Source: Gemmatimonadota bacterium (lineage in GTDB: Bacteria > Gemmatimonadota > Gemmatimonadetes > Longimicrobiales > Gaopeijiaceae). From it: a stretch of 64,000 nucleotides of DNA. A program made the translations under genes and the position numbers. Within the stretch, counting starts at the first letter, position 1, and each line of letters opens with the position of its first letter. This document shows positions 51,636 to 53,023 of the stretch, piece by piece. The notes under the pieces were generated by a model. That model was given only the letters and a program-made list of their open reading frames with translations. It did no database searches and was not told the DNA's origin. The stretch covers positions 62,001 to 126,000 of the forward strand of contig JAJDYN010000014.1 of assembly GCA_022825135.1 (NCBI GenBank), in the 5' to 3' direction.

Positions 51636-52664
51636 TCACCGCTGCGGCCCCGGAGCGCCCGGGCCGCCACCGGGCGATCCACCGGAAGGCGCCAGGGACA
51701 CACCGGCCATCTGCCGTCGCAGTGCGCGGATGCCCGCGGGACCGACGCGGCAGCACCCGCCGACTCCCGCGGCGCCGCTCGCGATCCAGTCGCGCGCATC
51801 CGGGATCGCGTCGCCGGCCCGTCCGGCGCCTGCGGCGGGCCAGTGCCACGTGCCGGTGTGGGCGTCGTACACCTCCCCCGAGTTGGGATAGGCGATTACG
51901 GGAAGATCGGTCACGGTGCGGATTCGCCCGATGAGCTCGCCGACATGGGCGGGCGCGACGCAGTTGACTCCCACCGCCGCCATCCGCGCCGTCCGGTCGC
52001 AGAGGCGCGCAACCTCCTCCACCGGCGTGCCGTCCCAGAGCCGCGCGCCATCCGCGCAGCAGAAGCTCATCCACACCCACGCATCCGGCGTCTCCTCCAG
52101 AATCCCGACCAATGCCTCGGCCTCGAGACCCGAGGGGATGGTCTCGCAGAGGATCAGGTCGGCGGCCGAGCGCGCGAAGAGCCGGAAGCGGCGCCGGTGG
52201 AACTCGTCCAGCACCCCGAACCCGACGCCGTACCGGCCATCGTACTCCGACCCGTCCGCGAGATACGCCCCGTATGGGCCGGCACTCGCCGCCACCAGCG
52301 GCCGCAGCCGCCCGGTGCGGTTGGCCCGAACTGCCCAGTACCGGTCGCGCGCCTCGACGGCCAGCGCGACCGAGAGCTCCAGGAAGCCGGCGGCCTCGGC
52401 GTCGCCGTAGCCCTGCTCGCGGAAGCCGGGAAAGCTCGCCTGGTAGCTGGCGGTGGAGACGCAGTCCGCACCTGCTGCGAGGTATTCGGCGTGCACGTCG
52501 CGGATGGCATCGGGCCTTGAGACGAGAAGTTGCGCGGACCAGAGCCGGGTGTCGAGCCGGTGTCCCCGGGCTTCGAGCGCCGTCGCCAGACCCCCGTCCG
52601 CGATCAGGGGCCTTCCGCGAGCGAGAAATCCGGCAAGGGGCCCGGTCGCCTCCGCCGGGTTCAT
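51636..52664 (-). CDS. homocysteine S-methyltransferase family protein
   Basis: [84 protein letters not shown] zinc ligands. Confidence 0.92.
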
Positions 52665-53023
52665 CCCTCCCGGGTGAGCAGCGTCGCCAGCATCTCCGCG
52701 TTGTATCCCACCAGCAGCCGATCCCCACTGCGCATCGTGGGCGCGCGCAGCTTTCCGAAGCGGCTGCAGAGGAGGCCCACCAGGTCTTCGTCGGCGGGCC
52801 GCGCGGCGTTCAGATCGACGTGCACGATCTTCTTTCCCCTGGCGACGTAGAGGTCGCTCACGCCCTCCAGCACGCCCAGGACCTCGTCGCTCGTCACGGA
52901 ATTGCGCGTGGCGCTCTGCAGTTCCTCCGTCGCGATCTCGTTCTGCGCAAGAAACTCTTGCGTGCGCTTGCAACTGGTTCAGCCCGGGCGGTGATACCGC
53001 CATTCAACGGACGACGTGGCCAT
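52661..53023 (-). CDS. candidate ArsC/glutaredoxin-like selenoprotein; in-frame UGA (52979..52981) read as selenocysteine
   Basis: ATG 53023 with GGAGGG upstream; MATSSVEWRYHRPG[U][105 protein letters not shown]; UxxC in place of CxxC; hairpin downstream; ATGA overlap with the next gene. Confidence 0.75.
52946..52962 (-). other. candidate bacterial SECIS stem-loop
   Basis: On the minus strand CGCAAGA-GUU-UCUUGCG, perfect 7-bp stem, beginning 16 nt after the UGA, apical loop starting with G. Confidence 0.6.

What the first reader, a model, noticed from the sequence alone, without database searches (positions are those of the whole stretch)
52661..53023. Hidden UGA-containing ArsC/glutaredoxin-like selenoprotein missed by the ORF track
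Seen: on the minus strand an ATG at 53023 with strong Shine-Dalgarno (GGAGGGACCA-ATG) opens a 121-codon frame broken by one UGA at 52981..52979. The stop falls exactly at the first redox position: ...WRYHRPG-U-TSCKRTQEFLAQNEI. The frame then continues with a thioredoxin-fold ArsC-like body (KLRAPTMRSGDRLLVGYNAEML) and ends in an ATGA overlap with the homocysteine methyltransferase gene. The ORF caller reports only a 79-aa fragment (52661..52897) and loses the active site. Known: selenocysteine commonly replaces the first Cys of CxxC in bacterial Trx-fold proteins. Inference: UGA is recoded as Sec.
Basis: partly seen in the sequence, partly recalled or inferred. Interest (0 to 1): 0.9.

Follow-up and report, generated by a model that had tools for sequence, protein, structure and literature searches.

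The report
ArsC-like selenoprotein of a known family

Summary
Observation and interpretation both hold. On the minus strand, ATG 53023 after GGAGGG opens a 120-residue frame with one UGA (52981..52979), in RYHRPG-U-TSC, ending in an ATGA overlap with a homocysteine S-methyltransferase gene. Read through, it scores 112 bits against NCBIfam NF041106 "ArsC family (seleno)protein" (cut-off 85). The genome has tRNA-Sec (UCA), SelA, SelB and SelD. All 64 loci examined (own copy included; Gemmatimonadota, Acidobacteria, Rokubacteria, Planctomycetota) carry TGA there. In 400 Gemmatimonadota genomes every hit over the family cut-off has exactly one TGA, and 65 of 67 such genomes have SelA. A 7-bp hairpin with G first in its 3-nt loop follows the UGA and fits the published bacterial SECIS model; only 2 of 5000 synonymous recodings reach it. 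AlphaFold2 gives a confident Trx-fold model (pLDDT 92) whose best PDB matches are Spx, at moderate superposition (TM about 0.55). The family is listed (NF041106, UxxC) in a 2026 catalogue citing a 2008 paper. By the residues tested it is neither a canonical ArsC nor a full Spx. Substrate unknown; a UxxC selenol/thiol oxidoreductase is most likely. Low-to-moderate interest.

The parts
52661..53023 (-). Selenoprotein gene, 120 residues with Sec at residue 15 (UTSC motif), then a TGA stop
   Evidence: Read-through translation; NF041106 112 bits; Pfam ArsC 27.1 bits, cut-off 24; AlphaFold2 model pLDDT 92.1
53028..53033 (-). Shine-Dalgarno-like GGAGGG, 4 nt before the ATG
   Evidence: Sequence; GGAGGG kept before the ATG in the genus relatives
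52979..52981 (-). In-frame UGA read as selenocysteine (codon 15)
   Evidence: TGA in 64 of 64 loci; all over-cut-off family hits in 400 genomes contain exactly one TGA
52970..52972 (-). Cys18 codon, the partner in UxxC
   Evidence: C18 in at least 90% of 45 aligned relatives; Tyr in L070
52946..52962 (-). Predicted bacterial SECIS hairpin CGCAAGA-GUU-UCUUGCG; stem starts 16 nt and loop 23 nt after the UGA
   Evidence: Fold; all 7 pairs formed in 40 of 50 distinct sequences, with two-sided changes; 2 of 5000 synonymous recodings reach 7 bp; model constraints in PMC13188914
52661..52897 (-). 78-aa GTG-started fragment that a mechanical ORF caller reports in place of the gene
51636..52664 (-). 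Downstream overlapping gene (ATGA), homocysteine S-methyltransferase; a neighbour in the genus rather than part of the selenoprotein system
   Evidence: NF007020 347 bits; next to the gene in the genus relatives examined and in L078

Best explanation
The gene encodes a selenoprotein of the NF041106 family. During translation the ribosome meets UGA at codon 15; SelB carrying Sec-tRNA binds the hairpin just downstream and Sec is inserted instead of termination (inferred from conserved parts and machinery). The product is a thioredoxin-fold, Spx/ArsC-like protein with Sec at the N-terminal position of a UxxC motif at the start of helix 1. It most likely acts as a selenol/thiol oxidoreductase that cycles between a reduced selenol/thiol pair and a Sec15-Cys18 selenenylsulfide. 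The substrate, the reductant and any role in transcription are unknown. The confidence given is for the decoding as Sec; the oxidoreductase role is inference, at about 0.7.
For: NF041106 112 bits over residues 6-111. tRNA-Sec(UCA), SelA, SelB and SelD in the same genome. TGA at the site in 64 of 64 loci, down to 38% identity and across several phyla. All over-cut-off family hits in 400 genomes have exactly one TGA, and 65 of 67 such genomes have SelA against 296 of 400 overall. The hairpin meets the published bSECIS constraints, is kept with changes on both sides of pairs, and is rare among synonymous recodings. Purifying selection on both sides of the UGA. High-confidence Trx-fold model with the UxxC at the start of helix 16-27.
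Against: No proteomic or Se-75 evidence. The 61-nt fold as a whole is no more stable than shuffles (z -0.40), and 77 of 1163 TGAs in this GC-rich window have a hairpin of at least that length at that distance, so the hairpin alone proves little. Two genomes with the gene lack a SelA hit (G343, G358; 89% and 82% complete). Cys18 is Tyr in L070, so the selenenylsulfide is not strictly universal. Superposition on Spx structures is only moderate (TM 0.51-0.56, rmsd 6.5-7.3).
Confidence: 0.96

Rival explanations
1. Sequencing error or pseudogene: a TGC/TGT codon misread as TGA, or a decayed gene.
For: Single-base changes convert TGA to Cys codons, and the genome is an assembly in 41 contigs.
Against: Independent genomes from several phyla carry the same TGA; reading frame and residues are conserved on both sides.
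Confidence: 0.01
2. UGA is read through by another route (nonspecific suppression or genome-wide UGA reassignment), or it is a regulatory stop with the downstream part translated from the internal GTG at 52897.
For: An internal GTG gives a 78-aa frame.
Against: This same gene ends at a TGA, the genome carries full Sec machinery, and conservation covers codons 16-42 between the UGA and the GTG.
Confidence: 0.02
3. The selenoprotein is a true arsenate reductase (ArsC) that uses Sec as nucleophile.
For: Pfam ArsC match at 27.1 bits, cut-off 24; the 2026 catalogue calls the family arsenate reductase-like.
Against: Two arginines that canonical ArsC enzymes use to hold arsenate (R94 in QRP and R107 in IGRP, E. 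coli numbering from my own knowledge) correspond here to A94 (LRAP, invariant) and Y/F107 (VGY/VGF). A clearly ArsC-type selenoprotein with LQRP and IGRP exists separately in a related genus (L086-L089). No ars operon genes were recognised among the neighbours inspected.
Confidence: 0.1
4. The protein is a Spx-type redox-sensing transcription regulator that binds the RNA polymerase alpha C-terminal domain, with Sec in place of the first Cys of the CxxC switch.
For: Best sequence and fold matches in the PDB are Spx; UTSC aligns with the CTSC of Spx.
Against: Scores far below the Spx model cut-offs (40.9 of 123 bits, 35.2 of 75). The alignment leaves out four residues (RMTE) including R47, near G52, part of the polymerase contact surface (my knowledge), and the Spx C-terminal tail is absent.
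Confidence: 0.12

Closest known systems
NF041106 ArsC_rel_Se_1, 'ArsC family (seleno)protein' (NCBIfam); 'Arsenate reductase-like protein, UxxC' in PMC13188914, which cites Zhang and Gladyshev 2008 (PMC2398784)
   Same: Same length, UxxC motif and whole-length match, 112 bits over a cut-off of 85
   Different: Nothing of substance; it is a member
Spx / MgsR family regulators (TIGR01617; PDB 6ghb, 1z3e, 7f75)
   Same: Thioredoxin fold; CxxC at the same place; best fold and sequence matches in the PDB
   Different: Sec for Cys, four-residue deletion removing R47, no C-terminal tail, A94 where Spx has the second R of RRP, scores below cut-offs
ArsC arsenate reductases, including the UxxS selenoprotein form ('Arsenate reductase (ArsC) 1', pfam03960, in PMC2398784)
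   Same: Same Pfam family; redox residue at the start of helix 1
   Different: UxxC not UxxS; two arsenate-binding arginine positions not kept
Glutaredoxin-like Uxx-star selenoproteins (NF041212, NF047338)
   Same: Weak N-terminal match (about 14 bits)
   Different: Models of about 70 positions; score far below cut-off

Membership tests
NF041106 ArsC family (seleno)protein | Score over the curated cut-off of 85 bits | tested here: met
   112 bits; 104.5 bits in the genome search, 1 TGA inside
NF041106 ArsC family (seleno)protein | UxxC motif with one Sec (PMC13188914 table) | tested here: met
   UTSC at residues 15-18
Bacterial selenoprotein | tRNA-Sec, SelA, SelB and SelD in the genome | tested here: met
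Bacterial selenoprotein | bSECIS: loop 3-9 nt, stem 4-16 bp, G in the first two loop positions, 16-37 nt from UGA to loop, MFE at most -7.5 | tested here: met
   3-nt loop GUU, 7 bp, 23 nt, -10.1 kcal/mol for the 39 nt after the UGA
Bacterial selenoprotein | Selenocysteine shown in the protein | not testable with these tools
   Needs MS or Se-75 labelling
Spx regulator | Score over Spx model cut-offs | tested here: not met
   40.9 bits of 123, 35.2 of 75, 31.6 of 159, 26.1 of 152
Spx regulator | RNA polymerase alpha-CTD contact residues R47 and G52 | tested here: not met
   Alignment leaves out RMTE incl. R47; G52 aligns with G54. The role of R47/G52 is from my own knowledge
ArsC arsenate reductase | Pfam ArsC gathering score | tested here: met
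   27.1 bits, cut-off 24
ArsC arsenate reductase | Arsenate-binding arginines equivalent to R94 and R107 | tested here: not met
   A94 invariant, Y/F107 in most relatives; positions placed through the Spx alignment, no direct alignment to E. coli ArsC was made
ArsC arsenate reductase | Arsenate reductase activity | not testable with these tools
   Needs an enzyme assay

The most novel reading that the evidence does not exclude
The branch is a Sec-dependent redox regulator or oxidoreductase: no Cys form was found among over-cut-off members in this phylum, so its chemistry may strictly need selenium there, and it may be a Spx-like sensor with a rebuilt active-site neighbourhood (LRAP in place of LRRP).
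Probability: 0.12. Interest if true: 0.45.

Novelty: new member of a known kind. Interest (0 to 1): 0.25.

Why it matters
It confirms that a reader of raw sequence can recover a recoded gene that an ordinary ORF track truncates, and adds clean comparative evidence for NF041106 in Gemmatimonadota, Acidobacteria and Rokubacteria: TGA in every locus examined and a conserved, co-varying SECIS. What the protein does is still unknown; that open question belongs to the family rather than to this window.

Tried and rejected
Looked for a functional neighbourhood: homocysteine S-methyltransferase and a GntG-type aldolase follow the gene in the genus, but among more distant relatives only L078 kept the methyltransferase, and the ORFs around fourteen other loci, read by eye, share no common theme, so gene context gives no function. 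A small lipoprotein-like gene lies just upstream in L045, L072 and L080 and was not pursued. A phylum survey centred on an acidobacterial locus was not accepted by the tool, so Cys forms in other phyla were not counted. Phages hold no match and plasmids only a Streptomyces Spx at 28% identity. The fold z-score is uninformative; the synonymous-recoding test was used instead. The TGA in the weak hit G384 (L090) looks like an ordinary stop upstream of a gene whose own CTTC motif is intact.

Full report
What was checked. On the minus strand GGAGGG (53033..53028) precedes ATG 53023; codon 15 is TGA (52981..52979); the frame then runs to TGA 52663..52661, which overlaps the ATG (52664) of the next gene. 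With UGA read through, the product has 120 residues: MATSSVEWRYHRPG-U-TSCKRTQEFLAQNE...

It is a real gene on both sides of the UGA. The read-through protein matches NCBIfam NF041106, 'ArsC family (seleno)protein', at 112 bits (cut-off 85) over residues 6-111, and Pfam ArsC at 27.1 bits (cut-off 24). In nine genus-level relatives there is no amino-acid change in codons 1-14 and one synonymous difference in all; pN/pS is 0.45 in codons 16-42 (few sites) and 0.29 in codons 43-120. The nucleotide-level stillness of codons 1-14 is notable but rests on few sites.

The UGA is conserved. A scan of GTDB genomes gave 33 further loci in Gemmatimonadota, Acidobacteria, Rokubacteria and Planctomycetota records, plus four titled Gammaproteobacteria that are so close (90-92% identity, same neighbours) that the titles are probably wrong (inference). 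With the loci from whole genomes, 64 of 64 have TGA at the position; the window's own copy is one of the 64, some loci are the same genome reached twice, and there are 50 distinct sequences around the UGA. In 400 genomes of the phylum, 67 have a match over the family cut-off and every one of those matches contains exactly one TGA; matches without TGA score at most 38.9 bits. A sequencing error is excluded by this. SelA is found in 65 of those 67 genomes and in 296 of all 400 (the hypergeometric value of 9e-8 ignores shared ancestry); the two exceptions are incomplete genomes.

The genome can decode it. It has tRNA-Sec with anticodon UCA (74.8 bits, cut-off 47), SelB (310 bits; a 634-aa frame), SelA (522 bits) and SelD (295 bits).

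The SECIS. The hairpin CGCAAGA-GUU-UCUUGCG begins 16 nt after the UGA, with its loop 23 nt after it. The published bacterial model asks for a loop of 3-9 nt, a stem of 4-16 bp, a G in the first two loop positions, 16-37 nt from UGA to loop, and at most -7.5 kcal/mol (PMC13188914); all are met (-10.1 kcal/mol for the 39 nt after the UGA). Among 50 distinct sequences 40 form all seven pairs; pair 21-35 is G-C in 36 and U-A in 7, pair 23-33 is A-U in 39 and G-C in 5, and the loop is GUU in 48. L026, L029, L032 and L044 keep a hairpin in a register slid by one base. Because the region is coding, the same 14-residue peptide was recoded with the codon use of three neighbouring genes: 2 of 5000 recodings reach a 7-bp hairpin with G in the loop at that distance. 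Weak points: the 61-nt fold as a whole is not unusually stable (z -0.40), and 77 of 1163 TGAs in this GC-rich window have such a hairpin by chance. In the acidobacterial relatives the predicted lowest-energy fold is a longer alternative stem. The SECIS claim rests on conservation and co-variation, not on the single fold.

What the protein is. An AlphaFold2 model from 45 relatives is confident (pLDDT 92.1, pTM 0.85) and has the thioredoxin layout, with Sec15 just before helix 16-27 (modelled as Cys). The best PDB matches by fold and by sequence are Spx proteins (Foldseek E down to 3.8e-5, TM 0.51-0.56; hmmsearch E 1.1e-10). Invariant residues in the family are Y10, R12, G14, U15, L25, G63, G90, L92, R93, A94, P95, G100 and G106; C18 is kept in at least 90%.

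Membership. It belongs to NF041106. It fails the Spx model cut-offs, lacks the RMTE segment that holds R47 of Spx, and lacks the Spx tail. It fails two arsenate-binding arginine positions of canonical ArsC (A94 and Y/F107), placed through the Spx alignment rather than by a direct alignment. It may still work like either; only assays can say.

Known status. Selenoprotein forms of ArsC-like proteins have been reported since 2005: UxxS arsenate reductase in the Sargasso Sea set (PMC1088965), ArsC-like in bacterial genomes (PMC1794560), and 'Arsenate reductase 2', UxxC, with 42 Sec and 238 Cys sequences in the GOS set (PMC2398784). The 2026 catalogue lists NF041106, UxxC, one Sec, citing the 2008 GOS paper (PMC13188914). 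I take the GOS family 2 to be the one meant because motif and citation agree; that link is an inference. If so, Cys forms exist in the wider family, and their absence here applies only to over-cut-off hits in this phylum.

Mechanism, shown and inferred. Shown: gene, conserved UGA, machinery, conserved hairpin, fold model. Inferred: SelB-dependent insertion at this UGA; a selenenylsulfide between Sec15 and Cys18 as the working redox couple; a role as a selenol/thiol oxidoreductase. L070 has Tyr for Cys18, so a monoselenol mode cannot be excluded. Gene neighbours give no consistent function beyond the genus.

Verdict. It is a new member of a known selenoprotein family whose function remains unknown, so interest is modest.

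Noticed in passing
L086 (G182), L087 (G085), L088 (G282), L089 (G337), around bases 501-803 (L086 on the minus strand): Four genomes of one related genus carry a different ArsC-like frame with an in-frame TGA at the redox position (IYEKPT-U-TTCRK) that keeps LQRP and IGRP, so it looks like an ArsC proper with Sec and a UxxC motif; it scores only 21-23 bits with NF041106.
   Followed up: partly
L091 (G072, plus strand) and L092 (G042, minus strand), around base 501: Genus g74 has a shorter form of the family (FYQRPG-U-TSCKRT) with one TGA in each of thirteen genomes at 64-74 bits, below the NF041106 cut-off of 85, so the model cut-off misses a branch.
   Followed up: partly
L045 126-650, L072 2013-2498, L080 1998-2483 (coordinates on the strand that carries the selenoprotein gene): A small secreted or lipoprotein-like protein (in L072: NPRFGIWRLRSDNPPPYKNIMTYAPHGDGGMSI) sits directly upstream of the selenoprotein gene in both Gemmatimonadota and Acidobacteria-type records.
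   Followed up: no
L078 1556-2994: A distant gemmatimonadete keeps the homocysteine S-methyltransferase (48% identical) right after the selenoprotein gene, as in the window.
   Followed up: no
L070 1385-1744: Relative with the UGA and hairpin kept but Tyr in place of the partner Cys (U-TGY).
   Followed up: no
window 50528-51601, minus strand: The gene after the methyltransferase matches the GntG family PLP-dependent aldolase model at 369 bits (cut-off 230), probably a threonine-aldolase-type enzyme.
   Followed up: no
L055, L058, L059, L060: Contigs titled Gammaproteobacteria carry the gene at 90-92% identity with the same neighbours as the window, which suggests the record titles are wrong.
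   Followed up: no
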